Below the pieces are notes generated by a model. The model was not told the origin of the DNA. It made no database searches and worked only from the letters and a program-made list of their open reading frames with translations. Positions 12,616 to 33,380 of a stretch of DNA of 64,000 bases are shown here, one piece after another (position 1 is the first letter of the stretch; every line of letters starts with the position of its first letter). Source of the DNA: Pleurotus djamor (taxonomy: Eukaryota; Basidiomycota; Agaricomycetes; Agaricales; Pleurotaceae). The DNA is taken from assembly GCA_029747585.1 (NCBI GenBank), contig JAPEVF010000070.1:61507-125506 (forward strand), given 5' to 3'. A program made the translations under genes and the position numbers.

Positions 12616-13474
12616 ATGCTTGAGCTAGAAACGACCATCCAGAGTATCTTGTTCTCCATCAACCAATGCGGGCCTACCTATTGGCGGCAGCTTCGCGACC
12701 CCTTCAAGGCGAACACAGACGCTGATCTACAAAACGCGGCGAGTATCCCGACCGAGGATCAACTTGTCCGTGCTGAGGAGCTTTATGATACCGCCGTGTC
12801 GAAAGCCCTGGTCGCTGCTGGTGTTCTGCATTCTCTCGACGCTGATTCTTTGGAGGTACGTACCGTATTGTTTCCCGCCAATACCATTTTCTGACCGCCA
12901 TTGTTTAGATCATCCGCCAAGCCCTCTCTTCTGTCGCCGTCAAGGCAGAACTTGGTCGGCGGTTGGATTGTCTCCTTCGCTACCTTGTCACTCCAAACGT
13001 ACTCGCCATGCTCCCGGAGACCAAGCGGATGGCGTCGCCTGAGCAAGCCCAGATCCTCGCAACCGCCTGGATGGCTTCCATCGCTGTCCTGGACTCGGTC
13101 AACCCACGAATGGCATCCAAGGGGCTGGCTCGTGTCATCTTGAACCTCGCTACGTGTGCGAATGGCTCGCATAACGGTGACAAAGCAAAGTAAGTCATTT
13201 TGTCGTACGATTGAATTAGCACCTTTACTGACCATGATCAAGGTGGCCCTATGCCATGTTCAAAGAAGTCCCTCTGGACGTGACCAAACACACGCCTACC
13301 ATCCGCGACCTTCAAGAAGAGGCCTTCCCTGCCGACCTTTCCCTCAAAGGAGCTCCGAGCGCTTCGTCTTCGACCGACGTTGACAATCCCGACCTCCCAC
13401 AGGTCCCGGTCGTATTCCATCCTTTGCAGCTCCCATACAAGTCGCAGAAAATCAAACGGCCACGGCGTCATTAA
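12616..13474 (+). CDS. Short member of a diverged RNase III-fold family (cassette 1, plus gene)
   Basis: Three exons: 12616-12855, 12909-13189 and 13243-13474, introns phase 0 and phase 2, product about 250 residues. Unrecognised by itself, but it is a paralogue of the gene at 28799: same intron positions and phases, a shared AL-x4-VKA-x2-GR block opening exon 2, LATA(W/F)M(A/T)SI in the middle, and WP...P-x-D-x-T-x-H opening exon 3. The exon 2 start also resembles exon 2 of the neighbouring long genes (AL...K...GR after a phase-0 intron). I therefore infer a reduced RNase III-like fold with none of the catalytic acids left. The C-terminus is basic (KSQKIKRPRRH), which could be a nuclear signal. 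It is convergent with the gene ending at 13704, with only 229 nt between stops. Confidence 0.72.
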
Positions 13475-13703
13475 GAGACCATTACGCCTAACGCTACCGT
13501 GCCCCAACACCATGATACTCGTGACACTGCCCAAGGGGGTCGCGGCGGAAGGAAATTCAACAAGGTGGCGCGTGCGAGTAGCAAGTAATTACCTCTGTTA
13601 GGTGTCCATAAAGAGTCTCGCTGGGTCGCTGGGTTTGCAGTTCAAGTTAGGATGTTCCTTCATTATATAGTTTGTTTGTACACTAGAAATCAGACCGAAA
13701 TGT

Positions 13704-15142
13704 TCAAAAGGTGTATGCATCTTCACCGTCCGCATCTACAACCTCGGAATTGTTCGTGTCCTCGTTGTCGGGTATGATGAGATTGAATCTAACAGTGACA
13801 TCGCAGAATTAGTTGGACAACACTCAGCAGACCAAGAAACGGAGGCTCTTCACCGGATTCCCGCCGCGGATAGTGCTTTGTTAGAAAACCAGACAGTCGG
13901 GAGGGTGATCTCGTCCATAATATCCCAGAATTCCACCGGGTCCCTAAGCCAAAGCTTCGCAACGGCAACGAAGAAGATGGATGGGAGCTTGTCGTCAGAG
14001 AAAGTTTCACGTCCAGATCTATGCAGGCCTGCCCACTGAGCACATAGGTTCACGGCGCTCCGAGAAGAGGCGAGTCGACAGATCGCCTAAATTCACGTCA
14101 GTGGAACAGGTTAAAGATGTATGCAGTTTAGGAAGACGCACAGCTCGAAGGTCCGAGCCACCTTCCTCAGCCGAACGGTGGCTCGGGAATAAATCATCAC
14201 ATTTGACGGCAGTGGCTGATTTGTAGAGCAGGGTGCCAAGATGGAGGATCGGTCGGCATGGTCCGATAACTTCGTTGTCGTTATTGAATCGGATAGGCTG
14301 GTCTTCTTGGGGAATCTTGAGGCTTTGTAGAGAGTTGTAGATCAAGATAGGTGCACGAGATCGGAACAATTTGGAGAATGTTTCTTCCTGCCGGGGGGAG
14401 GTTTTCTTGAATTCGGCATTACGAGACCTATTGACGATCCATAGGTAATGCTTGGAGGTAATGGAAGAGAACTGAGAATGGAAGTCGGACAAGGCAGGGA
14501 AGAGGGTGGCGTCGATGATCTTTTCGTAGAAGGCAGCGATCTGGTCCGAATCGTAGATGGTGGTGCAGTACCATAGCTTTGCTCTGAACGCATCAGCTGC
14601 TGCTTTCATGCCTTCGTCATTCGTCGGCACCGGGTTTCCGGACATCTGGCTCTCGATCCGTCCGATGGTCGAGTCTTTTGCATAAAGGATCGTAAGGGCC
14701 TACGTCGGCTTCAGTATCAGCAATGATCCCATCCGGATAAGGCGCATATACGCACCTCAAAACAAGAATACTTCTCTTCTTCCGTCCAGTCCTGGATTTT
14801 CTGCCTGAGCGAGTTATCGATGTCCAAATCGTCCAGTGGCGAAGGAGGCGAGAAGAAGAATTTATACAGAACACTAGCAATGTGCGCGGCGTGGACAGAA
14901 GAGCCAGTGTTGCTCAGAACGTCATTCTTCGCGGGGTCGGCGAGATCCTCGAGAGCAGTCGTGTTTCCAGAAATATTTGGGTGATGCTGGAATGGTTGAA
15001 CAGACAGAGACTCCTCCAGAAACAGCTCAAAGGTGGGGAATTGACCAGCAGAGGCTAGCTTCAAACGCTTCCAGTTGAAACTGCTTTGGGAACCTATCCA
15101 CTGGCGTTTCTTGATATGACCAGACTGAGAGTTAAATGACAT
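13704..15142 (-). CDS. Long member A of diverged RNase III-like family, predicted inactive
   Basis: Four exons on the minus strand. Exon 1 is 15142-14756 (129 codons, phase-0 donor GAG|GTGCGT). Exon 2 starts ALTILYAKDSTIGRIE, exon 3 starts AICRLASSRSAVNLC and contains LPSIFFVAVAKLW, and a short acidic exon 4 ends DADGEDAYTF. The first motif aligns with the RNase III signature as NDVLSNTGS, so the catalytic Glu and Asp are both Ser (residues 77 and 81). The second motif is AADAFRAK, keeping Asp165 but with Arg where the Glu should be. The fold is inferred from motif order and spacing. I chose the ATG at 15142 because it matches the paralogue's start (KKRQWIG follows in both); an in-frame ATG at 15187 would add 15 residues. 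Confidence 0.75.
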
Positions 15143-15370
15143 TTCCAGAGATATCACAAAGAGGAGGAACGCAGAAGGGGATGCCACAGGCGTCGCAGAG
15201 GGTGGTGGTTGTGGATCAAGAAGGAATGCAAGAGGACACCGACATCCGACTAGTAAAGCTTATTATCATGAGAATATAAGTTCACACGGTCAGAATCTGG
15301 TATAGTTCATTGCGCGTGTTTCCTATTTCGAGGCTAGTAGTGTACAAAGTAAAAAGTAGATAGAAAATTG

Positions 15371-15894
15371 GCAACGGCGAAAACCTAGAAATCAGACCGC
15401 CTTGTTCTTGAACACAGCCGAAATGTCCTCTAAGTTTTCCAGGTGCCAAGGAAGTCCTCAACCTAGGCCTCACCGTCGCCAGAATGTGGGCACATTTCAA
15501 AGCCTCCAGCTCTCCCGGTTACCCGTGCATCCCCTCCTCCCGCCAAGTCTATCCCTCCGAACTTAGCAACGTTGTTTCCCTTCCTCGCTGTCCGGTGGAC
15601 AAAGATAGCCCAATGAAGAACTATCCCAGGCACCCCCCTAGGTAGGGGATCAAATACTTTCGGAGAAGTGCCTTCACGAGTACAGAGCGGGTTGCAACGC
15701 CATCCGGCGAGACGTACGATGGGAAAGCAGAGGGACCGGTGGGTTAGACTTGGTCGACTATGTTTGTGCCACGAAGACACAACCCAGATGCGCGAGCTGT
15801 ATATATACACATTCCAGGAGGCTCCCCTATCTCGTGGATGTGTTAGTTTTTGTTGATCAACGTTGGATCAACGAACGCAAATTCAGCACCGCCG
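15371..15894 (+). repeat. Dispersed ~0.5 kb TATA-bearing repeat, copy 3
   Basis: Same landmark order as copies 1 and 2, from CAACGGCGAAAACCTAG to TTCAGCACCGCC, with CTGTATATATACAC as TATA box near 15800. It sits about 230 nt upstream of the start of long gene A, pointing away from it. The same arrangement holds for copy 4 and gene B. Confidence 0.85.
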
Positions 15895-16842
15895 TTACAT
15901 AACACCGCCTCCTCCAACCCACAATGACCGGGACTGAGTCCTTCACGCACAGGCTGCATGTTTGGTACGGATTGCATCACACGGAAGTGAGGAAACTCGT
16001 CATTTTCATTTTTAATCAAGTCTCGCCTCTGGATTCTTCCAAACGATTTGCTGAACCTGAAGTCAAAGACGCAATTGTCCACGATCCATATTCCCAGAAG
16101 CAAAAGCAGCTCAAAGCATCGAAGACATCGGGCGCATAGCACGCGCCGATACGACCTGGCGGACTGTGGTCTCACTACACTGCCTTGCTCCTGTCTTGCC
16201 AACGAGTCTCAGAGCTTCAGGCGACTGAATTTCGTCCCCTCCCCCGGACGGTGCTTCTACTAGATTGGCACATAGCCCAATGTCCCTTGGGCAATATTTT
16301 TTGATGCTGTATGACTGCCAGCCCTTTCTGGGACACCACCAGGGAGCGAGTCATCGAAGTCACTTCGCCTCCCTCTGGGCCTCAGCTCAACAGAATCGAC
16401 GCGTAAAGTCATTCCAGACGTTGTCTCGTTTCTGGGGACATAAGTTCATCGCAAATCCGTTATATTTTATGTGCACTATCTGGCTGCTTTCGAATGTGAG
16501 AGCACTGATGAAAATGCGTAGGGTGTGCTGAATCCTGAATCCCAGTCACTAACTGATAGCGTCGTCGTCGAAGGCATATGGCCCCAGTCATCACTGAAAT
16601 GAAGATGTCAAGGCCGTGATCGGATATGTAAAGGATAAAATCCGTATACCTAGCTGGCGAATACGATGCATAGGTTGGGAATTCCAATCGCGATTTTACA
16701 AGCCATTGTTCAAAGTTATATCGGTGAACGCACCACCAAGTTGAGGACAACACGATGCGAAGCCCGATGTATCTAAGGACCTTCCTTCGCATCTTCTTAT
16801 ATATCAATGGACGCAAGGTTACAAAAGGGGACGAGACGTAGA
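15895..16842. other. Region downstream of repeat copy 3
   Basis: An ATG at 15924, about 120 nt past the copy 3 TATA box, opens 71 codons (MTGTESFTHRL...), but nothing supports it beyond its position. A minus-strand open stretch at 16460-16816 has no recognisable motif. I assign no gene. Confidence 0.3.
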
Positions 16843-17187
16843 CTAGCTGAGAAGGGACTGTACACAGAGCTCGACATTGTAGGGGTCATCTTCATGCGGA
16901 AAGCGGTCAGCAGAGGCATCAGCCTCAAGGTCCCGAGCTGAATGATGTCTGAGATCTAGGCCTGTGAGAACAGCAAGGAAACGACTCTTAGAGTCGACGG
17001 CAAAGAAATACAGGATGTCGTCGCTCTTGGTGTAACGGATACCAGTGGGAGAAACGGCAGAGGAGTTGACGTTGCCTTCGGATTTGAACACTGGAGAACG
17101 GAGCTGATTGACATTCATCCAATTACAATATTCCTTGCCGACATGGTGTGGGGGTGCTAGTTTCTCTCTGTATACACCAGGTTTCAT
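16843..17187 (-). CDS. Small hypothetical protein, unrecognised
   Basis: A single open frame of 114 codons with protein-like composition (ILYFFAVDSKSRFLAVLTGLD in the middle). It lies directly downstream of long gene B on the same strand, 17 nt beyond its stop. No family, signal peptide or membrane segment is evident. It could be a separate small gene, a decayed extra exon of the neighbour, or chance. Confidence 0.3.
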   Translation of the reverse strand: MKPGVYREKLAPPHHVGKEYCNWMNVNQLRSPVFKSEGNVNSSAVSPTGIRYTKSDDILYFFAVDSKSRFLAVLTGLDLRHHSARDLEADASADRFPHEDDPYNVELCVQSLLS

Positions 17188-17204
17188 GCTAGAATGTTCG
17201 AGTC

Positions 17205-18620
17205 CTACGCATCTTCACCATCTACTTCGACATCATCGGCTTTGTCCACGTCCTCGCTGCCAGGTATAATAATGTTGAATCTAAGATAACATTGCGAGAT
17301 CAGTTGGAGGCCGAACAGACGAAGAAAGCCCTCACCCAATTCCAGCCGCGGATAAGACCTTGTTGGAGAACCAAACAGCCGGGAGGGTGATGTCGTCCAT
17401 GACATCCCAGAACTTCGCAGGGTCCCTAATCCAAAGCTTCGCAACGGCAACGAAAAAGATAGATGGGAGTTTGTCGTCGGAGAAAGTTTCACGTCCAGAT
17501 CTATGCATCCCGGCCCAGCGAACACAGAGATTTATGATGCTCTTGCACCCGGCAAGGCGACAAATCGCCTAAGTAAACGCCTGTGAGAGACAAGGTAGCA
17601 ATGGCTGGTGATTGGGGGGACGCACCGTTTGCAGCTCTGAGCCACCTTCTTCGACCGAGCGGTGGCGTGGGAACAAATCATCACATTTTACTACCAAAGC
17701 CGCTTTGTATAAGAGGGTACCAAGCTGAAGCATTGGTCGGCACGGTCCAACAACGTGGTTGTCGTTATTGAATTTGATAGATACGTCGTCATCTTCAGGA
17801 ATCTTGAGGTCCTGAAGAGGGATGTAGATTAGGATGTGTGAACGAGAGCGCATGAGCCCGAGGAATGGTCGTTCGTGGTGTGGCGAAACCCTGTTGAATT
17901 CGCCGTTCCGAGATCTGTTGACGAGGCGAATGTAATGCTTAGAGCCAGTAGAAGGGTCGAAGTCGTTCAAAGCAGGTGCGAGCGTCGCGTTGATGAAATT
18001 TTCGTAGAATGTAGCGATCTCATCCCATTCGTACATTGTGGTACAGTACCACAGCTTGGCTTTGAACGTATCAGCCGCCGCCTTCATTCCTTCGTCGGTA
18101 GTAGGAAGCTCTGAGTTCGACATGTGGCTCTCAATACGACCAACGGTACAGTCTTTCGTATACAACAGCGTCAGAGCCTAAGTCGGAGTTAGTATCAATC
18201 GTATTTCAATCTGGAAAAGGCGCATATACCCATCTCGAAGCAACAATATTTTTCTTCTTCGGTCCAGTCCCTGAGTGTGTGTCTAAGCGAGTCATTGGTG
18301 CCCAGAACGCCGACTTGAGAAGAGGGTACAAAGAAGAATTTATAGAGAACAGCAGCTACGTGGGCGCCATGAACAGCAGAGCCGATGTTACTGAGAACGT
18401 CATTCTTGGCGGGATCGGCGAGGTCCTCGAGAGCAGTCGTGTTTCCAGCAATCTTTGGGTGATGCTGGAAGGGCATCACAGGGAGAGACTCCTCCAGAAG
18501 TTGTTCGAAGGTGGGGAATCGACCAGCAAAGCCAGGCTTCAAACGCTTTCTGTGGAAACTGGCTTGAGGGCCGATCCACTGGCGTTTCTTGATAGGTCCA
18601 GACTGAGCGTGATTAGCCAT
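17205..18620 (-). CDS. Long member B of diverged RNase III-like family; exon 1 splice donor lost
   Basis: Close paralogue of gene A with the same exon plan: start MANHAQSGPIKKRQW, exon 2 ALTLLYTKDCTVGRIE, exon 3 AICRLAGCKSIINLC...LPSIFFVAVAKLW, exon 4 ending DGEDA at 17205. The RNase III-like motifs are NDVLSNIGS (both acids replaced by Ser) and AADTFKAK (Asp kept, Glu replaced by Lys), so it is predicted inactive. The donor after exon 1 is GAG|ATGGGTATAT where gene A has GAG|GTGCGTATAT, so the expected GT is gone. Splicing from the next GT gives a frameshift unless an AG inside exon 2 (ACGAAAG) is used, which would restore frame but drop about 8 residues. It may be a recent pseudogene or an alternatively spliced gene. 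Confidence 0.62.
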
Positions 18621-18902
18621 TTACAGAGATATCGTAGAGAGAGCGCAGGAGGAGAAGCCACAGGCGTCGCAGATGGTGGTGGTTTGGGATCCAGGAGGGA
18701 TGTAAAACCGAGCCGTCGAACTCGCGAAGCTTACCGTGAGAATGATATTTCACACGCTCAGAAAGGCGGTCACAAGAAAGTCAAGCAAAAGAACCTCGAG
18801 AAGAAGAACGAGGGTGAAAACGTATTTAGCAATCACACAGCGTTGTAAACTACGACACGTCTGCGTTTACTAGGCTACGCGCAAATTGGAACAAAAAAGA
18901 TA

Positions 18903-19430
18903 GGAAACGGTGAAAACCTAGATCTCAGCCCGCCCAGTTTTTGAACACAGCCAAGATGCCCTCTACTCCCCCAGGTGTTAGGGAAGACTTCGACCTAGGC
19001 CTCGCCATCGCCACAAATATCAGCACATTTCAAAGCCTCCGGCCCTCCCAATTGTTACCCTTGAACCCCCTCCTCCCACCATGTCTATCCCTCCAAACTT
19101 AGCAACGTTGCTCCCCTTCCTCGCTGTCTGAATGACAAGGATAGGCCAATGAAGGAACTACCCCAAGCACATTTCGACGCAGAAGGTCAAATACGTCGAA
19201 AGAGCACTTTCACGAGTACAAGCGGGTCGCAGCGCCATCTGGACGGGATATACAATGAGAAAGGAGAGGGACTGGTGGGGTAGGTTCGGTCGACTATGCT
19301 TGTGCTACAAAGAAATAGGACGGTCGCACCTGTCGTATATATACACTTTCCTAGCGAGTTTCCCCTATCGTGTAGAAATGATTTGTTGATTTCGACTTGA
19401 TTTCAACGAGCGGAAAATGAGCACCGCCGC
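18903..19430 (+). repeat. Dispersed ~0.5 kb TATA-bearing repeat, copy 4
   Basis: Runs from GGAAACGGTGAAAACCTAG to GAGCACCGCC with the same internal landmarks and GTCGTATATATACAC near 19335. It lies about 280 nt upstream of gene B, mirroring copy 3 and gene A. The intervening sequence also aligns (for example CACAGGCGTCGCAGA), so gene plus repeat were duplicated as one block. Confidence 0.85.
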
Positions 19431-20298
19431 TTCAGGCAACACCGCCTCAGTGTCTGTAATATTCAACCACGCGTCCAGCACATGATCGTGATTTGGTGGC
19501 CTTCCCCGCAGAGAGAATCCAGACCGATCCAGGGGCCTTCATAGCAAAGTTGGTTGAAGGCGAGAGGGTCTGCCTTCATACGCGAGTTTTCCTGGTAAAA
19601 TCTCGTTTCCAGCGTATGAACAATAGATGACTCAGAGACACATTGGAATTTGGGGCAGAAAATTCAGCGAACGCACTCTGATTCCCGTCGTAACGTTCCT
19701 ACATTTCTGCCAAATTTCTGCCCGCTGTGGGAGTCTTGGAACATTCCAAGAATGTCGACAAGTCCATCGTTGTGTGATCTTGACATGTGGAAGGGAAAGT
19801 ACGATCTCTAAAGCCCCGTGAGCTTTAAGCGTACGCCTCGAAGTTGACATTGAGGCGTGGTCACTGGTCCTTGGGACTTTCGGGAGAACTGCCCTGAATT
19901 TGCACCTCCTGGGTGAGGACTGCGCATTCTCGTTCACAAATTCTATCATAGAGAACCTACAAGATGGCGCAGAGTTAGAGTGAGTACTATGAAAAGATAG
20001 ATACTTCAATATGTACCCAAGATTTGTCGTTGGTGCTATCCTTGGATGCTTGGAGCTAGAGCAGATCGCAGACTCGGTGCCCCGTTGGGCTCTAAAAACA
20101 TTGAAAATTTGAGATGTGCGTATCCGAGATCTCAACATGTTGGTACTCATGAGCCTGATGGTTGTGGAAAATTCTGATTCAAGGTAAATACATGGCAGGA
20201 AGGTGAGCTTGATCGGGGAGGAGAAGGTCATAATTTTACTAAAGACCAACTTACTACGCGCCTCAAGCCGCGCGTGTAGTGGAATAACATATGCACCC
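19431..20298. other. Intergenic region downstream of the small secreted protein gene
   Basis: Contains a minus-strand open stretch that merely continues past the stop of the neighbouring gene in another frame. No independent exon is supported. Confidence 0.35.
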
Positions 20299-20958
20299 TT
20301 AGGAACAGATAACGCCTTCATAGGTGTAGCTATACTTGAATACGTTCCCGCCACTATGGAGGAATCATGGTGAGTTCATCACATCGGGAAGGAATTACGA
20401 CGGAGAAGGCTCACCAGCTGTAAACTGCGACGCAGGAACTCTTAGAATCCGTGGTCCACCAGATATCTTCGAGGTCAATGTCTGAGGACGCAGACACGTC
20501 AAGGATAGGATTGATCTAGGAAAAGTCTGTGAGTCAAATGTGGGTTGCTCAACGAGGAAGCATCGAATACTGACGATGGAACCATCCGGGGCGCCGTAAT
20601 CTTTGAAATTGGAAGCAGTGTCGGTACCCTTGCCCTCATATGCGCCAAAATTGATGCGTTGCTGTTTGGTACTTCCTGGAGGGTAGTATAAACCCGCTTG
20701 ACGAGTGAGGAGGAGACAGGATCGTTTCAAAGTGGCTCCCCTAATGGCCTATGGATCATGATGAGGAACAATCCAACGAAATAGGGATAAAGGACTCACG
20801 CCGCACGGGATGTGGATGCTACTGGCAACTCCTTCGTGGGAGCTCGAGAAGGTGAGACTTTTGCCAGCGGCGTGGTCGGTCCCAAAGACTTGGCCTTGGC
20901 TGGCGGGAAGGGCGGCGAGGATGAAAAGAGAGATGTAGTTGAAAAGGCAATGTTTCAT
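20299..20958 (-). CDS. Small secreted protein, unrecognised
   Basis: Four exons join cleanly on the minus strand. The N-terminus is a good signal peptide (KHCLFNYISLFILAALPASQG). The mature part of roughly 140 residues contains IPCGAIRGATLKRSCLLL, a NFKDYGAPDGSI block, an acidic DIDLEDIWWTTDSKSSC block and a C-terminal FKYSYTYEGVICS with stop at 20299. Cysteines are few and paired, as in many small secreted fungal proteins. I do not recognise the family and propose no activity. Confidence 0.65.
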
Positions 20959-21805: not shown

Positions 21806-21934
21806 TGCATTCGGAAGGCAACGAGCGCAACAGGGCTCCATATTTTCAGCTGCTTCCCAGCGCACATTGGAGGCATCGTGCACCAGAGATCCTGTCCGAA
21901 TGGACGTCCTCGGGTGCCCAGGTATCCGACGTGG

Positions 21935-22430
21935 AGTCGGCAGTGGCGCGATGTTGAGATCGGGGAGGCGGTGCTGGTTTATGGTTTGGTTGAAGGCGTC
22001 GGTGAGTCGATTGGCGATCAACAAACCCAAAACAAATTGCCACAAACAACGCTTCGCCACGAAAGCATAAAGCCAGAGTGCCTGTCTGCCATTTCTCTCC
22101 ATGGCACAAAACATGGTCGACCGGGTGTAACCCGCTATCAACCTTGCCTTTGCCTTGTTGGATCTCGAAGGATTTGGAGCTGTCGAACCCGTCTGTACCC
22201 TGGGAAGGCGTGAACCTGCATGACCTCCATGTGGTTGATCGCGCCTGTCGGACGCACTGCTCGCCAGTGTGCTCTTTGTCAGGTTGACCTTTCGGTCTCC
22301 GGGCAGTGGGGTAGGGCAAGACAGTTCCCATAAATCTGGAAGGGTCGACTTGGTGGAGGAGGGGGAGGTAGGCATACGGGGAGCTGGAGGCCTTGGATGT
22401 TGGGAACGGCGGGGTCTGGGTCGCAAGTTG
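21935..22430 (-). repeat. Diverged inverted copy of the dispersed TATA-bearing repeat (copy 5)
   Basis: On the minus strand the landmarks recur in the right order: AGGCCTCCAGCTCCCCG, CCCCCTCCTCCACCAAGTC, GACCGAAAG in place of GACAAAGAT, CCCGGTCGACCATGTTTTGTGCC, TTTGTTGATCGCC and AACCAGCACCGCC. Similarity is clearly lower than among copies 1-4, and the TATA box is degraded. Long open frames across this stretch are probably chance. Confidence 0.55.
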
Positions 22431-22877
22431 GCGGGCGCACCTTTGACGCTTGGGGGAGTCGTGGGCTAGTACAAGAACCAGTCAGCTGAGATTCACTAGC
22501 CCCGCCGTTTCTTTTGCCGAACATACCTTTTTTCCTATCTGAATTATTAGTACAGTCGATACTTGGTCGATACTCAGCTTGGCAAATTGAACATTGAATT
22601 AGTTCCAGTGAACGGATGATTAACGTTCTCAAGACAGTTTGAACGTCAGAGTTACGAGTACGGTTGTAAAGTCTCTCTTCCCGGGTGAGCAGTCACGGTA
22701 AGCAAGCACGAGTCTGGAAAGAGCATTCCATTTTCCGAGCTTCTGCAAATTGTACCTTAGTAATGACGAAAGTTGAATGGTCGTTACTGGAGCCTTATTG
22801 CAACGACGTCGATGAACTTGGAAGGAGAACCGCAAATTGCCGCCCATCTCTCCCCTTTCATCTCCAACTCGACTTCC
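22431..22877. other. Upstream region of the IND1-like gene
   Basis: No supported exon. The plus strand just before the ATG at 22878 is pyrimidine-rich (22845-22877), consistent with a short 5' leader. Confidence 0.35.
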
Positions 22878-24152
22878 ATGCTGAGGTGGGTATCAACGTC
22901 CGCAGTTCATCTTCACGAAAACCCATTGGTGAGCATCAAAGCCACCAGCGAATTCGGGCAACTAAGGCTTACCCAGGGTTTGCCCAGAAAAGGCGCAGCG
23001 GTCGCACCTCAAATCCCGCGTCGCACTCCCATCGTCAAACGCAGTATTCCCAATGTTAAACGCGTCGTCGCCGTAGCCAGCGGTAAAGGAGGTGTAGGGA
23101 AGAGTACGGTTGCTGGTGAGCTCAAGTTCACGTCCTTTTTCCGCGCGACTTGTACTGGATTTTTTGAAATACAGTGAACCTCGCGTTCCACCTTGCTCTC
23201 CTCCGAAATGCTTACCCCGACACATCCCGACGCCTACGAGTCGGGATTCTTGACTTGGATGTCTTTGGGCCGTCTATACCGACTCTCATGGGACTTCGGA
23301 ACGCGCCAGAACCGGAATTAACGCAAAGTAAGAACGCTCTACCTCTAGAATGATCCATTGTTCCCAACCTGATTGAAGGTTCATAGACGGTGCTATCTTG
23401 CCGCTAACAAACCACGGCTTACAATGCATGTCCATGGGTTTCCTGCTACCTAAGCCATCGACTCCGACAGCGGACGACGGCATGGAAAGCACCCCCATTG
23501 TCTGGCGAGGTCTGATGGTACAGAAGGCCGTCCAACAACTTCTTTTCGATGTTGATTGGAGTGGTGGGGCTGGTGATTTGGATGTCTTGGTGGTGGATAT
23601 GCCTCCGGGTACAGGTGATGTTCCCCTGACACTGGGGCAATTGGTCAATGTCGATGGTGCGTCTACGCAACACCCACGTCCATGCCTCCGTGCATCCAAT
23701 TGACTTGGAAAACTATAGGGACTGTCATTGTATCCACACCGCAGGATGTCGCACTGGCAGACGTTCGTCGGGGTATCTCCATGTTCAGAAAAGTCAACCT
23801 TCCCGTGAGTTTGCCTTCGTTCCCTTCCTCTTCATATTCGTTTCTTTTCCCTTTCTGACCCAACCTCATTCAACTTCAGATCATCGGTCTCATCCTCAAC
23901 CAATCCCTATTCTTCTGCCCATCCTGCAGCACGCCTCATCGACTCTTCGGGTCCCCAGATTCCTTTGAACGCACTGCGAAAAACATGAACCTCAGCATCC
24001 TCGGCGAGCTACCTCTGACGAGCGATGTGAGCCATTGTGGGGATGCTGGTCGGATATATGGTCTGGGAGATACTGCGAAGGATCTGGGTGGCAAGCAATG
24101 GACTGAGACTATGGACTCGTTAGCACATCATGTATGGAATTACGTTAAGTAA
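22878..24152 (+). CDS. IND1: Mitochondrial Mrp/NBP35-type P-loop ATPase (IND1/NUBPL-like)
   Basis: Carries Fe-S clusters for mitochondrial respiratory complex I assembly. The N-terminus is rich in Ser, Arg and Lys with no acidic run ([12 protein letters not shown]...), consistent with a mitochondrial presequence. Then come the deviant P-loop [14 protein letters not shown] (about residue 65), [14 protein letters not shown], a long [17 protein letters not shown] segment, [13 protein letters not shown], and near the C-terminus FFCPSC, the CPxC-type pair that bridges the Fe-S cluster in the dimer. Four or five introns are needed. One possible intron (about 22929-22976) is 48 nt with no stop, so the presequence may or may not contain 16 extra residues. 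The start at 22878 is the ATG nearest the presequence; an upstream in-frame ATG exists. Confidence 0.88.
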
Positions 24153-24511
24153 CGGACGTGTATCCGACTTGTAGAGCTGTCCTAATCAACAAAATACCGA
24201 CGGTCGGCGGCGGGATCTTTTGGGAGTCATCGAAATCACTTAGCCGTTACGGTTTGTACCTGCAATGCGACCAGGGTACATCATGGAGCTGACACGGTCA
24301 CGAAGGCTAGTTGCCGTTGGGACGGATGGTGGTCTGTACGGCCTTGCTGTAGGAAGGAAGGAAGGGGACTGGACATTACTGTCAGGGATAATATACATGC
24401 CTACATTACCAACAGTCCGATGCAACAGGATATCAGCAAGGACGGATAGGAAGTCGACGACTGTGGGGACAGATTCATCGTCAACGCCGTCCAAGGTACG
24501 ATACACACAGT
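24153..24511. other. Convergent spacer between IND1-like and His-rich genes
   Basis: 3' flanks of two converging genes. A minus-strand open stretch at 24240-24506 follows the His-rich stop, but I cannot tie it to a gene. Confidence 0.35.
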
Positions 24512-25740
24512 CTATGAGAATGATCCATGGATGAGTGCGTCCCAGCGGTTCTTCGACTGAAGTGCCTGGATGTAGGTGACCTTAGCCTTGTCAGAGGCAA
24601 CGATGGCATCGGCTGGGATAGCTGAAGCTTGAATCGGAGAGGGTGAGACGATAGAATTCTCCGCAACGACCGGTAGGTCATTGAATTCTGGGAGAGCAGG
24701 CGGCAAATGAGCATGCGGAGAAGGACACTGGCTTGCTGTCTTCGACAACGAGGATGAGTGAGTCGGGCTGTTCGACTGGGAGTCCGATGTCGCTCTGTGT
24801 CCGTCCAATGGGGCATTGCGCTCGTGCTCGTGCGCGCGGTCATGGTCATGGGACGCCTCAGAGTTCTATTAATACAAACGTCAGTCAACACACCAGCGAA
24901 TCGAATCGAACGATGAAAACGCCACAAAGTAGAAGCAAAGAGAGTAACCAATGGGGAACCAGACAGCGAGGGAAATGAAACCCAAGGATAACATGCACAT
25001 GCACGCACCTGTAAGCTGAGGGGAGAAGGTCCATGAGCGTGGGTGTGGGAATGGGAGTGTTGTAGCGGTGGGGGGAGGGGAAAAGGATGATTGGGCAGCG
25101 AGCTGGGGTTGCCATGGCTTTGAAGAGGCGAAGGATGTGGGGGAGGTGGTATAGATGGCGTCCCCGGCGTCGAGGTATGGGGGAAGGAATACGGATAGGC
25201 TGGGCTAGCTGACCCCGACGATGAGCGAGAAGAGGGAGTGTGCGGACGTTTCTGAGGATACCGATAGCCATGGTTGACCCAGTCAGACTGCGTGAATCCA
25301 TGGAATCATGCGAAACAAACTACGCACCGGGTTCAAAATGCTTCCCAGAGCCAACCGCAACGCCTCTTTGTGGTGATAGTGGGCGTTTGAGGGGGTAGAA
25401 ATCCCTTCGTGATGGCGATGATGGTGCTCATGAGGGTGATGATGGTCATGGATGTGAGCTGGTCCACGAGGGAATTGGTCATTTGGAGGGCTCTGAACCT
25501 GAGTTGGTCCCTAACAAACAAAGGCATTCTATCATTACCAGAACCATATACAGGGATAGTACGAGATCACGATAACTCACCATTTCTAGTAGTACAAGTA
25601 AATATACAAAGATGCTCCCTATCGGTGCGAAACCGTTACTTCCTTGAATTTGCAACAACCGAGCAAACGCACACACACCTTGGAGTGATAATAATATTAC
25701 AGCGAAAGCCAGGTGATCCTGGCTATGGGGAGCGTTGAAT
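24512..25740 (-). CDS. His/Pro-rich protein with N-terminal hydrophobic segments, unrecognised; 5' end uncertain
   Basis: Three or more exons read consistently on the minus strand. The first two hydrophobic segments lie at about 25735-25575 (FLAIAICLFLF, then IGSIFVYLLVLLEM). A strongly His-rich stretch follows (HIHDHHHPHEHHHRHH near 25440), then a Ser/Pro/His linker (HSHSHTHAHG near 25040) and a C-terminal exon ending LQSKNRWDALIHGSFS at 24512. The His clusters suggest metal binding, as in loops of zinc transporters, but I see no cation-diffusion-facilitator core helices and make no such call. Upstream exons reaching towards 26050 are likely but could not be joined without doubt. A TATATATAT at about 26255 may be its promoter. 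Confidence 0.45.
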
Positions 25741-26435
25741 AGAAAAAGACAAATCGCAATCGCAAGGAATTGTGATGTTCGAGGAGTTAGTCAAAGGTTG
25801 GTTGCTGTGTTGGAACCAGTATTTAGGTCATCAGCGGTCCGGCGAAACAGGCAACCGCGATCATGACAAATACCCCACAATTACCCCTTGTGGGGTACTA
25901 CCTTGGCAAAGATAATCAGTTTATCTAAATCGCTGGGTTAGACAGCGCCGAGAAGACGAAGATCATGTTGACTCACAAGCACCAAATGAAAGCCCAAATA
26001 TGACCAGAACCGATGTCGATGAGGGTTGACCGACATCAAGAGCCGGCCATTAGACGGCCAAAAAAATTCGAGATAGGAGAAATCAATCTTAAAGCTGCGC
26101 GGGATCCGTATCCAAACAAGCTCGGCAGACTTGAGCATTCAGGGAAAGATGAAATCTGAAGGATCTCAGTCACCCTTGACTGCACAACGAGATGGACATA
26201 CCTGTCGCTAAACGGGAAGGGACATCGTTGATAGGAAAACCGATGGCAAGTATATATATAATGAGCAGCTAGAAGATACAACAGTCGAGAACAACAGAAC
26301 TCTCTTCGCACCTAGCGGCAAAGATGAAGGAGAAATAATTAGTACTAGACATAAGAATGACAAAGTAACAAACACTTCAAGAATCCGCACAAAAGCACAC
26401 AGGGGAACGTATGTCCAGTATCAAGTACTATGTGA
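25741..26435. other. Upstream part of the His-rich gene and H2A.Z 3' flank
   Basis: Likely holds 5' exons or leader of the His-rich gene. On the minus strand GTGAGTCAAC...CTAACCCAG near 25975-25930 looks like a real intron, followed by DLDKLIIFAK. Exact structure unresolved. Confidence 0.35.
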
Positions 26436-26984
26436 CTATTGCTGTCCTTCGGGTTTCTTCCCTTGGACCTTTGGGTTGGCCGTCAAGCTCTTGTGGATGA
26501 ATGGCAGGACACCCCCGCCCGCGATGGTGGCGCGAACTAGCGTATCCAGTTCTTCGTCTCCACGAATGGCCAATTGAAGGTGGCGAGGGGTGATACGCTT
26601 CACTCGAAGATCCTTGGAAGCGTTTCCTGTAACGTTCCTCAGAACTGGAACAGCATCAACGAAGTAGAGAGAAGTGACCCACCAGCAAGTTCGAGCACTT
26701 CCGCGGTCAAATATTCCAAGATAGCGGACGTATAAACAGCAGCTTTCGCGCCAATCCGAACATTATGCTGTGTTCTCTGTTTCAAGTAACGATGAATACG
26801 TCCAACAGGAAACTAAGGGGTACGTCGTCAATCCTGTTCGAAAATGAGTCAATCATGAAAAAAAAAAACGGACTTGTAATCCAGCTTTCGCGCTCCTAGT
26901 CTGCGTATGTGGGGCACCGTCACCGTTGGCATTCTGCGACGATCCAGCCTTTGATTTTCCTCCTCCACCTTTATTGGGAGCCAT
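26436..26984 (-). CDS. HTZ1: Histone H2A.Z
   Basis: Replication-independent H2A variant placed at promoters. The minus-strand start at 26984 gives MAPNKGGGG and a Gly/Ser/Lys tail, then RSAKAGLQ, an intron, [27 protein letters not shown] (histone fold), another intron, and [25 protein letters not shown] with a short basic tail ending GKKPEGQQ at 26436. The [37 protein letters not shown] segment is diagnostic of H2A.Z rather than canonical H2A, which has NDEELNKLL. Canonical C-terminal SQEL is absent, as expected. Confidence 0.95.
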
Positions 26985-28059
26985 GATTACACTTCAACGG
27001 TTTCTGAAGAACTTGAGTGAGGAAGTGGCAAGCGAGATATAGGGTCCGAATTTCGAGTTGAAGTCCTAGCAAGTCTCCTGGAGAGCAGAGCAGGCTGTAC
27101 GTGACGTTTCGCACCAGGAATTCAGTGAAGTCGCTGGTGTTGAGTTTGGGAAAGTGCTTACGAGGAGGACGCGAAAGTGGCTGAGATGGTGCGCTCCTGA
27201 TGGTCCAGGAAAGGGAGGTGTTGATGCTTGTTTGCGTGCATCGAACCAATCAACAATGTCGTCACATGACACCGACGCCTCCTTCAAGTTGCGCGCCTCG
27301 ATGATCGATCGCGCCCAAGTGTAAGGGTACGTGGATTTTTCGCTGTGTATGGACTCAAATAGCAATGCAACAGGAACCGTATCCGACTCAAACTCGAGTC
27401 TGACTCTGCAGAATGGACTCTGTAGAAATGGGTCTCGACGGAGCTCTCGCAGAGTACCGAGCAAATTGCGACTCGTAACCACACCACCAAGAGCGTAGGA
27501 CAAGGTCTAGATGATGAATCGCTAGACCCCGTATAGGGGGCCATCGAGAAAGCAAACCCCGTTACTTTCCTCCATCCACACTATGGTGTAGATATGGACG
27601 CGCGGGTTGACAAGGAAAATGGCCATGTGCTTCCCCTCGCTTTTTAATCGTGAGCAACTTGACCAAGGTTTCTGAGTTGATTAGAATTTGAACGCTTTCA
27701 CTTGTAGGCGACAATGCGTTTGATTCTCCCTGACGTGTTGGACAGCTTCCTAGCTCTTCGCATCCTCCTCGCTCACTCCGGAGGTGCCCTGCCACAGTTT
27801 TGATCTCGTATAGCGTCTTGCAGTCATCATGACCTCCTAATTGCGTCACGACCGAAATACGATGTTCTGTACTACTTTAGCAAACTTTACGACGACGCTG
27901 TCGCACACAGATCTGAAGAGTCGCATCTTGTCGAAGCCGTAATAGGCCGTTTGAACAGATATGCAAGTGGCGCCTTGAATCTGGAGGGCGCAACATGGAT
28001 CTAATACTGAGACATTCTTCTCACAAATACAGGCTCGCAGACTACACTAGCTGGCTAAA
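26985..28059. other. H2A.Z upstream region with an unassigned open stretch
   Basis: A minus-strand open frame at 27066-27503 (145 codons) has plausible protein composition (for example VRLEFESDTVPVALLFESIHSEK) but no recognisable family. It may be a leader of H2A.Z, a gene fragment or chance. The rest has no supported gene. Confidence 0.3.
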
Positions 28060-28620
28060 CGACCTAAAATCACAAAGGACTATGAAACCAGGCGAAGATG
28101 GCAGGGACACTAGATCTCAGACAAACAGACTCTAGTCCCTCTAGCGTTTCCCTATGCGTCGAAGTGCGCCAATTTCTTCCAACCTAAGCCCTGCCATCCC
28201 GACACACAAGCCTCCAGGTCCCCGCAATCACCCTTCCCTCGCCAAGGTAGATCATATCCAGGTCATCAGCGTCGTATTATTCCCTCCCCGCTGATAGGCG
28301 ACTCTAGGTCAGCCCAACAAAGATGTACATTGCGACAATGCATATCTGACAGACTGAGACACCCCTGGGACGAGGGTTCAGCCTTCACGGGATCCAGCGG
28401 GTCAACAGCACCTCTCCTTCCACGAACTACAAAAGCTCAGGCTCAAGCCATCACGGATCAAAACTGGTCGAACATGTGTGTACTCTGTGGATAAAGTATA
28501 GCCAATGCACCAACTGACTTTATACCTCTCAGGAACCCCTTTCTTCTGCCGTATTTGAAGTTCTCGCTTTTGTTGATTCCGATAAGTCGACACAGCTCTT
28601 GCGCCTCACAGCACGTCCGA
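28060..28620 (+). repeat. Possible degenerate copy of the dispersed repeat (copy 6)
   Basis: Weak but ordered matches: AAGCCTCCAGGTCCCC, CCCTTCCCTCGCC, CTTCACGGGATCCAGCGGGT, ACTGGTCGAACATGTGTGT, AAAGTATAGCC in place of the TATA box and CTTTTGTTGATTCC. It ends about 180 nt before the start of the plus gene of cassette 2, which makes an association with this gene family worth testing. Confidence 0.35.
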
Positions 28621-28798
28621 GTACATGATCGATCACTCTCAATTGCGGTGGCTGAGTCGTCTTTTCCGCCTTCCGTCATGTGACGCACATTGTCGACTTG
28701 GTCGTCGCGCCGGAAGGTCTTCATCCATTCGCCTCTTCCGTTCCTACATCCTACACACCCTTCTACCCACCCAAATACTACGCCCATACGAATCGCCC

Positions 28799-29832
28799 AT
28801 GGTGACCCTATCTTCTTCGTCTTCTGAGCACTCTTCGGACTCCCCTACACCTCCCAATCAGCCATCGCTAAGGACAACTACCCAGAATATCGCATTCACT
28901 ATTGCACAGAACGGTTCTTTTTCTTGGGAAACCCGATCTTACGGATGCATCGTCCTCTCAGACCTCCACAACTCCACCAACGCCTTGACCGAGGAGGCTC
29001 TTCGCCACGCAAAACAAGTCTACGGCGCCGCTGTGTCTGCGGCGATCCAACCCTTCGTTTATCGCCGTCTACTAGACCCCGAGTCAGTCAAGGTCAGATT
29101 TGGTTCCCGCCTTTTATAACTTCTCTCCTTCTCTAACCCGCAAAATCCAGACCATACGCAAGGCGCTTCTTACACTGACCGTGAAAGCCGACATTGGACG
29201 GAGTATCGGACGTGTCTTTGAGCTCTTCGTTTCGCCTGAAACTCTACGATCGCTTTCCAACACATCGACACCGCCTACGACCTCAACATCTCAGACACTA
29301 GCGACCGCCTTCATGACAAGCATCTATCTCTTTGATTTGCAGGATGCCAAAGCGACGTCGCGGTGGTTGTCAGATATTCTCGCCCCTCTCGTAGCACAAG
29401 CTGCATACCTACATAGTGCTGGCCAGCCACTAGTGAATCTAAAACGACAGTGAGTACTTGATTCTGCTAACAGTCACTTTGTTTTGCTGATGACGCGTAT
29501 CACTTAGATGGCCGGTAGAGCCGTACACCACCTTGCCCGTCGACCTCACGGAGCATTTGGCTCAAGTCAACCATCTGCAAGTGAGCCTATCAGAGGAGCT
29601 CCTTGCTTCGTCCACGACCAGCTTCTCACCCTCGTCCTCACCGGCATACGTCCTCCGTCCTTCCCAGGCACCGTGCAAGCTTCAGCGTCGCAGGATTGTG
29701 CACTCCGATCCGTTGGACTATTATACCTTTAAGCGCAACAAGCGCATCTATGATGCAGCTAAGGCAAACGTACTCAGGGAGACTAAGCGTCGATCCAATC
29801 GCGAGAATATCGCCCCGGGTGCTGCAGTATAA
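28799..29832 (+). CDS. Short member of a diverged RNase III-fold family (cassette 2, plus gene)
   Basis: Exons 28799-29092, 29151-29449 and 29508-29832 give about 306 residues. Intron phases (0 and 2) and positions match the gene at 12616. Shared blocks are TIRKALLTLTVKADIGR at the start of exon 2, TLATAFMTSIYLFD in the middle and WPVEPYTTLPVDLTEH at the start of exon 3. Residues 1-30 are Ser/Pro-rich. The C-terminus is longer and basic (KLQRRR..., KRNKR, ETKRRSNR), suggesting nucleic-acid or nuclear association. The middle lines up with the region between the two RNase III motifs of the long genes, but the catalytic acids are absent (ATAF instead of ADSF-E). The stop is only 109 nt from the convergent long gene C. 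Confidence 0.72.
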
Positions 29833-29941
29833 AGAATATGATTCGTGTTTCCTACAGGGTATAGTCTGTTGATAGATAGTATGTAGAAAATGTCATGGAT
29901 TTGGAGACTAGTGCGTATGGATGGATCACTGTGATATATGA

Positions 29942-31603
29942 CTATGCGGGAGCCATAGCCGTGGTAGCTGTGGTGGTAGTGGTGGTGGTGTCTGTTGACC
30001 CAACAACATCGAAGCTGAAATAGACATGAGCAAAGGGCGGAACAACATGGCGAATATGCGTCCTACCAGATTCCCTCCTCGAAGAGCACGGCATCCGCCA
30101 CGAAAACAAACAAGAAACTCAGTGTCTCCGCGAGGTTTTCAAACTGGGTGGTATCCCGTTCTTTTAGCATAAACAATGCGACAAAGAACGTTGAGGGGAG
30201 ACAATCTTCATGGTCCGCACAGTTCGATAATTCCCCGAGACCGGCGAGTTGGGCGAGGAGAGTCAAAGCGCCTTGACAAGTAGCGACTCGAGTCATTTGC
30301 TAGCGTATCATAAGCGGTTAGATGATTTTGTAAACCGAGAAGAGCCTAGTTGGACGCACCGTCCGCAAGTCAGAACCGCCCCTTCCAGCTAATTGGTGGC
30401 TTGGGAACATGGAATCGATTTTGCTGGCGATGATTTGATTAAAAAGCAATCTTCCTCTAAAATCCATTGGGCGATGGACTCCAGTAACACGNTTTTTTAT
30501 CATCAAAGACAATAGGTGGGTCCGACGGCAGCATTTTTAGAGGAGCCACATCGTCGGTCAAGTCTTCAGTGTACGGCTCCAGTGCGTCGAGGAAGGCTTG
30601 TTCGTGCTTGGGAAAGACTTCTCTGAAGGCCTTGGTGCGGTAACGGGTGACTTGGTTGTGGTAACGATCTGACCCACGGGCGATGTACGAAGTCAGAAAG
30701 TCAGCAATGGCATGTTCGAGGGTCCGGTCGACTATAGCCTCGTAGTATTTGATCAGGTGAGCTTCGCCGTGTGTTTTGACGATCCAATACGTAAGGGCTT
30801 CAAATGAATCAGCTTCAGCCTTCATCCCGCTGGACGTCTCGGGGAGTGGTCGATCGTACATCCGGAAAAAGATGCGTCCAATGGTGTCATTTTGCGCGTA
30901 CGTAGTTGATAAGGCCTGGAAAATGAGATCAAGAAATGAGTGAGAGTACTTTGGCTAAGGGAAGAGGACATATATGCACCTCAATGCAAGCGTGTACCTG
31001 CTCGGTTGGCCAGTCTTGTGTCAACTCTGACGAGGAGATCGCGTCTTGTAGAACATCAGCGATGGAAACATTGTGTAGACCATCCCCTGTATGTTCAATC
31101 ACATCATTCTGCGTTTTGTCGGTGAGTTGTGGTAGAACTTCATTATTGAAATCGATGTTGGGGTTGTGTTGGAAGCGCAGCGAAGTTAAACCTTGCGATC
31201 CCAGATATTCTTCGAACGCAGTAAGGACCCGTTTCTTTCCAGAGCCAGTCTGAGGTTGAGCGCCAGCCTCGACACCGACATCGACACCCATTGGGTTCGA
31301 TTCATTTCCAGAGCCAGCAGTGTCGGACTGAGTCTCGCTATCCAGCAGTGTCGGGCCAGTTGATCCAGTTCCAAGATACACCGAGGCCGTTTCTCGCTCC
31401 ACTGTTTTGGTGATCCTCTTTTTCTTAGGTTGCCTTTCGGATTCCGAGTCGAATTCGTGCTGTAGGTTTCCGTCAGAGATAGATTCGTCACGTTCAGCTT
31501 CGCGCTTGCGCTTGATAGGTATAGTTGTGGATCCAGTCTGAGCGGTCTGAGCATCCAGGAGATGTGTCTTTTGAGGCCTGACCGGAGAGGTAGCTGCGAG
31601 CAT
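29942..31603 (-). CDS. Long member C of diverged RNase III-like family, active-site acids largely retained
   Basis: Exon 1 (31603-30980, 208 codons) begins with a Lys/Arg-rich, Ser/Thr-rich region with two nuclear-signal-like clusters (IKRKRE at 30-35, PKKKR at 59-63). Then come FEEYLGSQGLTSLRFQHNPNI and the motif NDVIEHTGD (residues 166-174). Exon 2 starts ALSTTYAQNDTIGRI and has KAEADSFEAL (Asp244, Glu247). These match the RNase III acids E-x3-D and D-x2-E; the 70-residue Asp-to-Asp distance is one more than in E. coli RNase III (45 to 114). The position of E38 is Asp167. Exon 3 has LPSTFFVALFMLKERD, and exon 4 ends in a Thr/Ala-rich tail. An N at about 30492 next to a T run breaks the frame; ignoring it restores homology with gene D. 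No double-stranded-RNA-binding domain is visible. Confidence 0.78.
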
Positions 31604-32080
31604 CGTCAAGATATGCGGTTATTCGTAGGCTGGGTTTGGTACTAGAGTGGTGTTACAAGCTGACAAGGTGGTAGTTGGAGAAAGAGATAGAATATAGGAC
31701 GGGGACGAAGTGAATCTGAATTTATGCTTACTTCCTGGAATTCCGGCAATTTCCGGCTTAGTCATCCTCGGCCCCATGTGCGCTTGGGCCAAGTGCGACA
31801 GCCAGAGGGGCAGCCTGGCCAGGTTGTGGGGATAGGAAGCCGTCTACAACTGTATCAGTCACACTAAGCTCAAGGAGACACTGAAATAAACCATGGCAAT
31901 TAAGTACTACAGAAATTGGATACAGTTTAGACAGTTTAGTCGCATCACCCTCCAGGTGGCAGGCATAGTTGTGTTGGTGAACGATAGAAAATATACGTCG
32001 TTCCCGGATTGGAAGTTCGAGAAACTAGTCTGTGTGAATGAAGCAATCCGAGGTTGCGACTACATATGAACGGCAACACT
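31604..32080. other. Spacer between long genes C and D
   Basis: Upstream region of gene C and 3' flank of gene D, both on the minus strand. No exon is supported. Confidence 0.4.
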
Positions 32081-33380
32081 CTAGGCTGGCGGAATCAGCT
32101 CGAGACTGAGGTAGGCATGAGTTGAGATGATAGATATAACAAGCACGCATTTTACCTGATCCCATCTTCAAAGAGCACCAAGTCCGCAATCATAACCAGG
32201 AAAGGGATGAAGCCCTCCGCAAGTTTCGCAAACTTGGATCGATCTCTCTCCCGAAGATTGAGCAACGCAATGAAAAATAGCGACGGGAGACGACGTTTAT
32301 CGGACTTTTCCGTCGGACCTTCTTCAAGACCAGCAAGTTGGGTCAAGTGGGTCAAGACGCTCCTGCAAGCAGCTAGCCGACCAATAAGCTAGCCGACCCA
32401 AAGATGTCAGAGAATGTGATCAAGGTGAAGGTTAAACAAACGTACGGTTCGCAAATAAGAACCATCCGATCCAGCATTTCGGTGATATGGAAACATCGAA
32501 TCGATCTGGGTGGCGACGAGTTTATCGAGGAGTAACCTTCCCTGGAACTCGAATGGTCGATAGTAGCCGATAACCTGGTGGTTCTCATCGAATACAATGG
32601 GCGCGGCGTCCAACACTTGCATCTTGAGGGGGGCCGAAGCTTTCGTGAAGTATGGATCGTGACCCTCCAGAGCGTCGAGGAAGGCTTTCTCGTGTCTCGG
32701 TAGTACGTTCTTTTCCCAGTAGAGGTATCGATCCGCGTCATCGTAGTAGTCAGACCCGCAACTGGAATAGCCCGCCAAAAAGTCGTTGACAACATAAGCG
32801 AGAGTCTGGTGGATGAGATCCTTGTAGAATTGGAGAAGCCGGTCCTTTCCGTGTGTGTCGTAGATCCAATGTGTCAGAGCTTTGAACGAGTCGGCGTTGA
32901 CTTTGAGCATTTTATCCGTGGCGGGGAGCGGTCGACCATGTACTTTACAAAAGATACGCCCAACGACAGCATTTTTCGTATACGTCGCTGCTAGTGCCTA
33001 GAACATTATATGAGTGATGTCGATGATGTTGTCAGTGGAGAACACGAGCGTGTATGCACCTCAAAGCAAAGGATTAGCTTGTCTTCGGTCCAGTCCCGAA
33101 CCAAGTCCGATGAAAATAGCACATCGTAGAGCGCTTCAGCCATGAAGAATTTGAGGAGAGCATCGCCGGTGTGATCTATCGCGTAGTTGTTGCTGGGGTT
33201 GGTAAAGTTCTCTAGAACGCGGTCGAAATCGATGTCGGTGTGAGCCTGAAAGCGCAGCGATGTTAGGTCTTCGAATTCCAGATATTCTTTAAAAGTGGTT
33301 ACAGGGCGTCCAGGTCCACAGTTATTCTCGAGATCCACAGACTGAATTTCGCGTTGCGCTAGTTTGTCTTCGATTTCCAT
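32081..33380 (-). CDS. Long member D of diverged RNase III-like family
   Basis: Same four-exon plan as A, B and C: exon 1 with TFKEYLEFEDLTSLRFQAHTDI and the motif NYAIDHTGD; exon 2 ALAATYTKNAVVGRI and KVNADSFKAL; exon 3 LIGRLAACRSVLTHL and LPSLFFIALLNLRERD; exon 4 SLELIPPA ending at 32081. Counting from the ATG at 33380, the acids are Asp69, Asp73 and Asp143, again 70 apart, but Lys146 replaces the last Glu, so catalysis is doubtful. An ATG at 33544 would give a basic N-terminus like gene C (HLNKRKCEFD), but a frameshift near 33440 blocks it; that is either an assembly indel or decay. The exon 3 acceptor lies in a short tandem duplication. Confidence 0.72.

What the first reader, a model, noticed from the sequence alone, without database searches (positions are those of the whole stretch)
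12616..33380. A six-gene family of highly diverged RNase III-fold proteins in about 21 kb
Seen: four long genes (A 13704-15142, B 17205-18620, C 29942-31603, D 32081-33380) share exon plan, block order and motifs; two short genes (12616, 28799) share the exon 2 opening block and a nearly identical intron position. Established: RNase III active sites use E38/E41/D45 and D114/E117 (E. coli numbering) in N-E-x-L-E-x-x-G-D and A-D-x-x-E-A motifs. Gene C shows N-D-V-I-E-H-T-G-D and A-D-S-F-E-A with the two Asp 70 residues apart, against 69 in E. coli. Inference: this is a lineage-specific RNase III-like family without dsRNA-binding domains, perhaps acting in RNA-based defence or selfish-element conflict.
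Basis: partly seen in the sequence, partly recalled or inferred. Interest (0 to 1): 0.9.

Follow-up and report, generated by a model that had tools for sequence, protein, structure and literature searches.

The report
Paired, Dicer-core-like genes in oyster mushroom
A pink oyster mushroom carries a scattered family of strongly diverged gene pairs, each joining a stripped-down double RNase III protein that resembles the cutting core of Dicer to an unknown partner; one pair differs sharply between the two haplotypes, which hints at a role in recognition or genetic conflict.

Summary
The window comes from Pleurotus djamor. The four long genes (A-D) are real at the stated coordinates, with three shared introns (phases 0,0,2). 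They belong to a family, L, of 10 distinct copies found in this assembly. The RNase III idea holds and goes further: AlphaFold models of two L proteins align to RNase III-fold chains, one across BOTH RNase III domains of Dicer and Drosha. L is thus a roughly 400-residue tandem RNase III protein without recognisable helicase, PAZ or dsRNA-binding domains. Domain 1 keeps E41, D45 and E117 in 5 of 10 copies, including gene C; domain 2 lacks the D45, D114 and E117 equivalents in all 10. The two short genes are not the same family by profile comparison; they belong to a second family, S (9 copies). Eight of 10 L copies lie tail-to-tail with an S copy, and S and L divergences correlate (r=0.71). Between haplotypes, S2 and C form a 2.8-kb island of divergence (dS 0.37-0.47, against 0.05 in adjacent D). 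Function is inferred: a paired, polymorphic RNase III/pseudo-RNase III module in recognition or conflict. Other species could not be tested, and no interaction or activity was shown.

The parts
13704..15142 (-). Gene A, L family: tandem RNase III-like protein, 420 aa; exons 15142-14756, 14699-14142, 14086-13854, 13788-13704. S/S/D/R at the E41/D45/D114/E117 places of domain 1.
17205..18620 (-). Gene B, L family, 415 aa; neighbouring paralogue of A (69% aa identity, dS 0.80). No S gene found beside it; first-intron donor is ATGGGT; the deposited model P0002 leaves out the end of exon 1.
29942..31603 (-). Gene C, L family; E41/D45/D114/E117 equivalents all present in domain 1 (read in the C926 allele); exons 31603-30980, 30915-30360 (one N at 30492), 30299-30067, 30014-29942. 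The allele on C926 reads open in 4 exons.
32081..33380 (-). Gene D, L family, 376 aa from an internal ATG (deposited as ONZ45_g4045 = P0001, with a different 5' end). D/D/D/K at the four catalytic places. No S gene found beside it; its C926 counterpart carries a 1-base deletion in exon 2.
12616..13474 (+). S1, short partner gene, 250 aa, tail-to-tail with A (229 bp between the genes); introns phase 0 and 2; basic C-terminus.
28799..29832 (+). S2, short partner gene, 305 aa, tail-to-tail with C (109 bp between the genes); introns phase 0 and 2; basic C-terminal region.
28568..31317 (.). Island of haplotype divergence spanning S2 and most of C: 80-91% identity to contig C926 per 250-bp window, 93-99.6% in the ten windows before it and 96-99% in the eight after it (31318-33317); minimum at the S2/C tail-to-tail junction.

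Best explanation
A-D belong to a P. djamor family (L) of roughly 400-residue proteins made of a basic, probably nuclear-targeting N-terminus plus two RNase III-fold domains in tandem, that is, the catalytic core of a Dicer without its other domains. Domain 2 lacks at least three of the four catalytic acids in every copy. Domain 1 keeps E41, D45 and E117 in half the copies. An active copy could therefore cut only one strand of double-stranded RNA, and a degenerate copy could only bind. L genes mostly occur, and diverge, as tail-to-tail pairs with a second gene, S, of unknown fold; I infer that the two products act together, probably as a complex. The most likely role is a paired, polymorphic recognition or conflict module acting on RNA (allorecognition, antiviral defence or selfish-element control), kept diverse by balancing selection at least at the S2/C locus. 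Supported by computation: tandem RNase III fold, motif states, pairing, co-divergence, purifying selection and the S2/C island. Inferred: nuclear site, S-L complex, RNA nicking or binding, balancing selection, biological role.
Against: No Pfam or NCBIfam model reaches its cut-off (best Ribonucleas_3_3, 12.5 bits against 35). Model confidence is moderate to low (pLDDT 62.9 and 53.1; pTM 0.66 and 0.45). Domain 2 has no sequence-level support (67 of 150 shuffles reach its score), and the degenerate subset alone finds nothing in PDB. Of the other 4 of 16 dN/dS values, D is 0.64, L474a 0.49 and two have none. Elevated divergence is seen at one pair only: L500/L595 are almost identical. In the background comparison C500/C595, 11 of 92 aligned windows are under 0.90, and one stretch of 8 windows is diverged or unaligned, so such islands are not unique. 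Frame changes in the second haplotype are found for paired copies too (L595, S595, S1140b, each with an N in the stretch; L1140a, +8 without N), so loss of a partner does not cleanly predict decay. Two haplotypes are not a population; introgression or gene conversion could give the same island. S has no assigned fold and no interaction was shown.
Confidence: 0.47

Rival explanations
1. Selfish two-gene element or post-meiotic driver: L is the harmful nuclease-fold protein and S its neutraliser, or the reverse; pairs spread by duplication and decay later.
For: Dispersed paralogous pairs always in one arrangement. A, B and S1 are not found on C926 although it holds 8.4 kb beyond the point homologous to window 20112, and no near copy was found elsewhere. 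B lacks a splice donor; several second-haplotype copies have frame changes.
Against: Three of the eight paired L copies, and A among the window's own, lack the catalytic acids yet stay open. No terminal inverted repeats bound the pairs at three loci tested. Both diverged S2/C haplotypes read open apart from the N in window C.
Confidence: 0.2
2. Ordinary RNA-processing or RNA-silencing paralogues derived from Dicer that diversified without conflict; the S2/C island is introgression or gene conversion, not selection.
For: Tandem RNase III architecture as in Dicer. Fungal Dicers that lack identifiable domains are common (PMC12663654, abstract and passages). Purifying selection in most comparisons. 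Other diverged stretches exist in the background comparison.
Against: Copy number, loss of catalytic residues in 4 to 5 of 10 copies, domain 2 degenerate in all 10, repeated pairing with an unrelated gene, and a divergence peak that covers just the pair.
Confidence: 0.28
3. The helical models only resemble RNase III by common helical packing, and the motifs are chance.
Against: Two models, of proteins 26% identical, are both topped by one fold family with a clear gap to unrelated rows. Profile hits to RNase III only. Motif co-retention.
Confidence: 0.05

Closest known systems
Dicer / Drosha tandem RNase III core (RNase IIIa + IIIb)
   Same: Two RNase III-fold domains in one chain, aligned over both halves; domain 1 motif E-x-x-x-D ... 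D/N-x-x-E in 5 of 10 copies.
   Different: About 400 aa; no helicase, PAZ, DUF283 or dsRNA-binding domain among Pfam matches at E<=1; domain 2 degenerate in 10 of 10, domain 1 lacking acids in 4 to 5 of 10. A survey of 1592 fungal proteomes required PF00636 at E<=1e-3, two tandem RNase III domains and an RNA-binding domain (PMC12663654, sections 4.2 and 2.1 read), so it would not list these proteins (inference).
Trypanosome RNA-editing endonuclease pairs (RNase III proteins of which only one is catalytic)
   Same: A pair of RNase III domains with one competent site at most (PMC9508840, abstract read; an RECC1 chain is rank 48).
   Different: There the two domains are in separate proteins and act in the mitochondrion; here they are in one chain, in a mushroom, beside an unrelated partner gene.
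Podospora het-B locus (adjacent genes Bh and Bp existing as highly divergent allelic variants)
   Same: Two adjacent genes that both diverge between haplotypes (PMC10890737, abstract read).
   Different: het-B uses a HET-domain and a PII-like protein; no incompatibility has been shown here, and only two haplotypes were seen.
Mushroom A mating-type HD1/HD2 pairs (recalled)
   Same: Paralogous two-gene units with diverged alleles (recalled).
   Different: HD pairs are homeodomain proteins; no homeodomain appears among Pfam matches of S or L.

Membership tests
RNase III superfamily (L proteins) | All-helical RNase III endonuclease fold | tested here: met
   (moderate to low model confidence; Foldseek alone, did not rank it)
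RNase III superfamily (L proteins) | Catalytic set E41, D45, D114, E117 | tested here: inconclusive
   Varies by copy: E41, D45 and E117 present in 5 of 10 (two of these with N at D114), lost in 4, mixed in D; domain 2 lacks the D45, D114 and E117 equivalents in 10 of 10, with an acid at the E41 place in 5
RNase III superfamily (L proteins) | Score over a curated family cut-off | tested here: not met
   Pfam and NCBIfam, best 12.5 bits against 35 and 12 bits against 166.25
Dicer | Two tandem RNase III domains | tested here: met
   Model residues from 72-86 to 389-402 over both Dicer/Drosha domains; C-half alone matches single RNase III domains in two models; sequence alone does not show domain 2
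Dicer | Helicase, DUF283, PAZ or dsRBD domain | tested here: not met
   None among Pfam matches at E<=1 in 10 L proteins; the only two families matched were Ribonucleas_3_3 and Tubulin-bind_CPAP. Several of the 10 start inside exon 1; fold-level remnants not excluded
   hhalign probability 0.2%, E 0.29; the aligned stretch falls in L domain 2, not in the exon 2 opening block
Allorecognition (het) locus | Allelic divergence concentrated on the locus | tested here: met
   S2/C only, two haplotypes; other diverged stretches occur in the background
Allorecognition (het) locus | Incompatibility reaction between allele classes; trans-species polymorphism | not testable with these tools
   needs crosses or population genomes
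DNA transposon | Terminal inverted repeats bounding the unit | tested here: not met
   no convincing pair bounding S/L at L040, L041 or L044; the weak 77% and 79% arms found there are at chance-like quality

The most novel reading that the evidence does not exclude
A previously undescribed fungal recognition or genetic-conflict system: multi-copy convergent gene pairs in which a tandem RNase III (Dicer-core) protein, active or pseudo-enzymatic, is matched to a co-evolving partner S, with ancient haplotypes kept by balancing selection at one or more pairs.
Probability: 0.27. Interest if true: 0.88.

Novelty: new variant of a known kind. Interest (0 to 1): 0.68.

Why it matters
Dicer-like cores without any recognisable guide or RNA-binding domain, several of them kept open while losing catalytic residues and paired with a partner gene, would be a new use of the RNase III fold. 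Standard domain models do not detect them, so similar genes may lie unannotated in other fungi. If the S2/C island reflects balancing selection, it offers a concrete candidate recognition locus in a cultivated mushroom.

Tried and rejected
One family of six: rejected by profile comparison. Mobile element with inverted repeats: no convincing bounding repeats at three loci. Internal repeat by sequence, domain 1 against domain 2: not found (112 of 150 shuffles reach the score). S fold: no Pfam match better than E 0.027 and in PDB only one sequence, at E 0.24 and 0.83; S could not be folded because only unspliced window sequence or found proteins may be submitted. Relatives elsewhere: three protein searches returned only P. 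djamor proteins P0001-P0003. Searches scored only about 8,000 candidates sharing most words, and missed P. djamor copies that exist in the genome, so they say nothing on other species. Viral contigs: none. Telomere repeats: none in the window. Because of this check and a recount of background divergence I lowered the best explanation from 0.50 to 0.47 and the novel case from 0.30 to 0.27, and raised the ordinary-paralogue rival from 0.25 to 0.28. Literature: searches returned no paper. Searches (10 of 16 listed; 8 of 8; 11 of 12; 12 of 124; 10 of 23; 10 of 81) listed papers on mushroom genomes, Dicer, milRNA, meiotic drive, incompatibility or pseudoenzymes; no listed title or abstract start describes such a pair. 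Only listings were seen, apart from PMC12663654 (outline with abstract, passages, sections 2.1 and 4.2), PMC11138114 (passages), PMC10890737 and PMC9508840 (abstract and outline).

Rows merged before counting: haplotig copies (C926 with C, D and S2; C595 with C500; C1140 with C474a and C724). The 10 L and 9 S counts are distinct loci after that.
Full report
What is there. The window lies in Pleurotus djamor (P0001 is named ONZ45_g4045 [Pleurotus djamor] and matches gene D), contig C1085 of a 55.9-Mb, 1413-contig assembly. Outside the gene pairs, contigs C926 and C1085, and C500 and C595, match at about 94-96% over long stretches, so the assembly seems to hold both nuclear haplotypes (inference). 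The short genes have two introns, phases 0,2.

Two families, not one. The four long proteins align throughout their shared part. The two short proteins align with each other. A nine-member short profile (A6) against a ten-member long profile (A3) gives hhalign probability 0.2%. I call them L and S.

Genome-wide. Searches with D, A, S1 and S2 and splice-aware models show 10 distinct L loci after merging haplotigs: A, B, C, D, C550, C935, C500, C474a, C474b, C724. There are 9 S loci: S1, S2, C550, C935, C500, C474a, C474b, C724, and one on C1085 upstream of the window. In 8 of 10 L loci an S lies tail-to-tail: 229 bp apart for S1/A and 109 bp for S2/C, and 274-874 bp between model ends at the other six, where some models stop short of the true gene end. 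B and D have no S of their own in view. The upstream S has no L match scoring 55 or more with A or D in its 4-kb locus. Pairwise identities of S and L over the 8 pairs correlate, r=0.71, reached by 23 of 20,000 permutations (for the S2/C row I used the C926 allele of C and the window's S2). The pair therefore seems to duplicate and diverge as a unit.

Active site. By alignment column, E41, D45 and E117 equivalents are all present in C (C926 allele), C500, C474a, C474b and C724; C500 and C724 have N at D114. All three are absent in A, B, C550 and C935. D has D, D and K. In domain 2 the D45 place is R, T, M, L, Y or H, the D114 place S, L or A, and the E117 place F, L, Y or H; an acid stands at the E41 place in 5 of 10. 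That register is mine, read from the sequence, but no acid lies within the LPSxFFVA block in any of the 10. So at most one site per chain could work.

Selection and haplotypes (Nei-Gojobori, 16 comparisons). dN/dS is 0.05-0.31 in 12; it is 0.64 for D/D' and 0.49 for L474a/L1140a; it has no value for L500/L595 (no synonymous change) and A/L550 (synonymous sites saturated). C differs from its C926 allele by dS 0.47 and S2 by 0.37, while adjacent D differs by 0.049. Sliding identity shows 10 consecutive 250-bp windows (28568-31067) under 0.90, lowest (0.80) at the S2/C junction, with the D windows 32068-33317 at 0.96-0.98. A second dip (0.84-0.90) lies at 33318-34067, over D's 5' end and upstream, beside an insertion. 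As background, in C500/C595 11 of 92 aligned windows are under 0.90, longest run 3, but 74000-75999 is a stretch of 8 windows that are either under 0.90 or unaligned. At C500/C595 the L genes themselves are nearly identical, so the island is a property of one pair, not of all. Narrow divergence around incompatibility genes is described for Aspergillus fumigatus (PMC11138114, passages read), and an adjacent divergent gene pair for Podospora het-B (PMC10890737, abstract read).

State of the copies. B's first intron lacks a GT donor, and the deposited model leaves out the end of exon 1. D's C926 counterpart has a 1-base deletion in exon 2. C's C926 allele reads open, so the N in C is probably an assembly ambiguity. 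The six paired L models outside the window use GT donors and contain no N. In their second haplotypes, L595 (+1), S595 (+3, +3, +4) and S1140b (+1) differ in length in exons, each with an N in the stretch, and L1140a has +8 without N. I therefore do not claim that having a partner protects a copy. C926, beyond the point homologous to window 20112, shows no A, B or S1 in its 8.4 kb, and no near copy was found elsewhere: presence/absence variation or incomplete assembly.

Interpretation. The L N-terminus is basic (KKR...KRLK and the like) and the C-terminal parts of S1 and S2 are basic, suggesting nuclear proteins (inference from sequence). I commit to a paired RNase III/pseudo-RNase III module under recognition- or conflict-type selection, with the rivals listed. 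How widespread it is in other fungi was not testable here.

Noticed in passing
window 9439-9997, 10859-11296, 15364-15781, 18896-19343: Four copies of a ~420-560 bp apparently non-coding repeat (76-80% alike), two of them just upstream of A and B; a further copy (78-91% alike) lies upstream of the L gene on C474/C1140.
   Followed up: partly
window 34096-34824: About 730 bp present here and absent from haplotype C926, with near-complementary ends (GTTTGCAATGAACTTGGCACTCCG / CGGAGTGCCAATTTCATTGCAAAC): looks like a small inverted-repeat element.
   Followed up: partly
window about 22810-23760: Part of an Ind1/Nbp35-like P-loop gene (name recalled from its motif) has 73-74% identical partial copies on C926 at 4973-5874 and 7964-8137.
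   Followed up: no
window 21926-22533: Dispersed repeat with 93-95% copies on C1085, C921 and C1140.
   Followed up: no
L045, L046, L047: The C724 pair is flanked by same-direction copies of a ~550-bp repeat; C1140 carries two pairs side by side, while one pair each was seen at the start of C474 and on C724, suggesting copy-number variation between haplotypes.
   Followed up: partly
L043 1751-2500 (C500 about 66750-67500): At C500/C595 the L gene is near-identical between haplotypes but the stretch upstream of its S partner is 77-89% alike.
   Followed up: no
window 36864-39183 and 47577-48623: ORFs with Velvet-factor matches and a DEAD/Helicase_C ORF; F-box-like ORFs at 46038-46841 and, just under cut-off, 58411-59283.
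   Followed up: no
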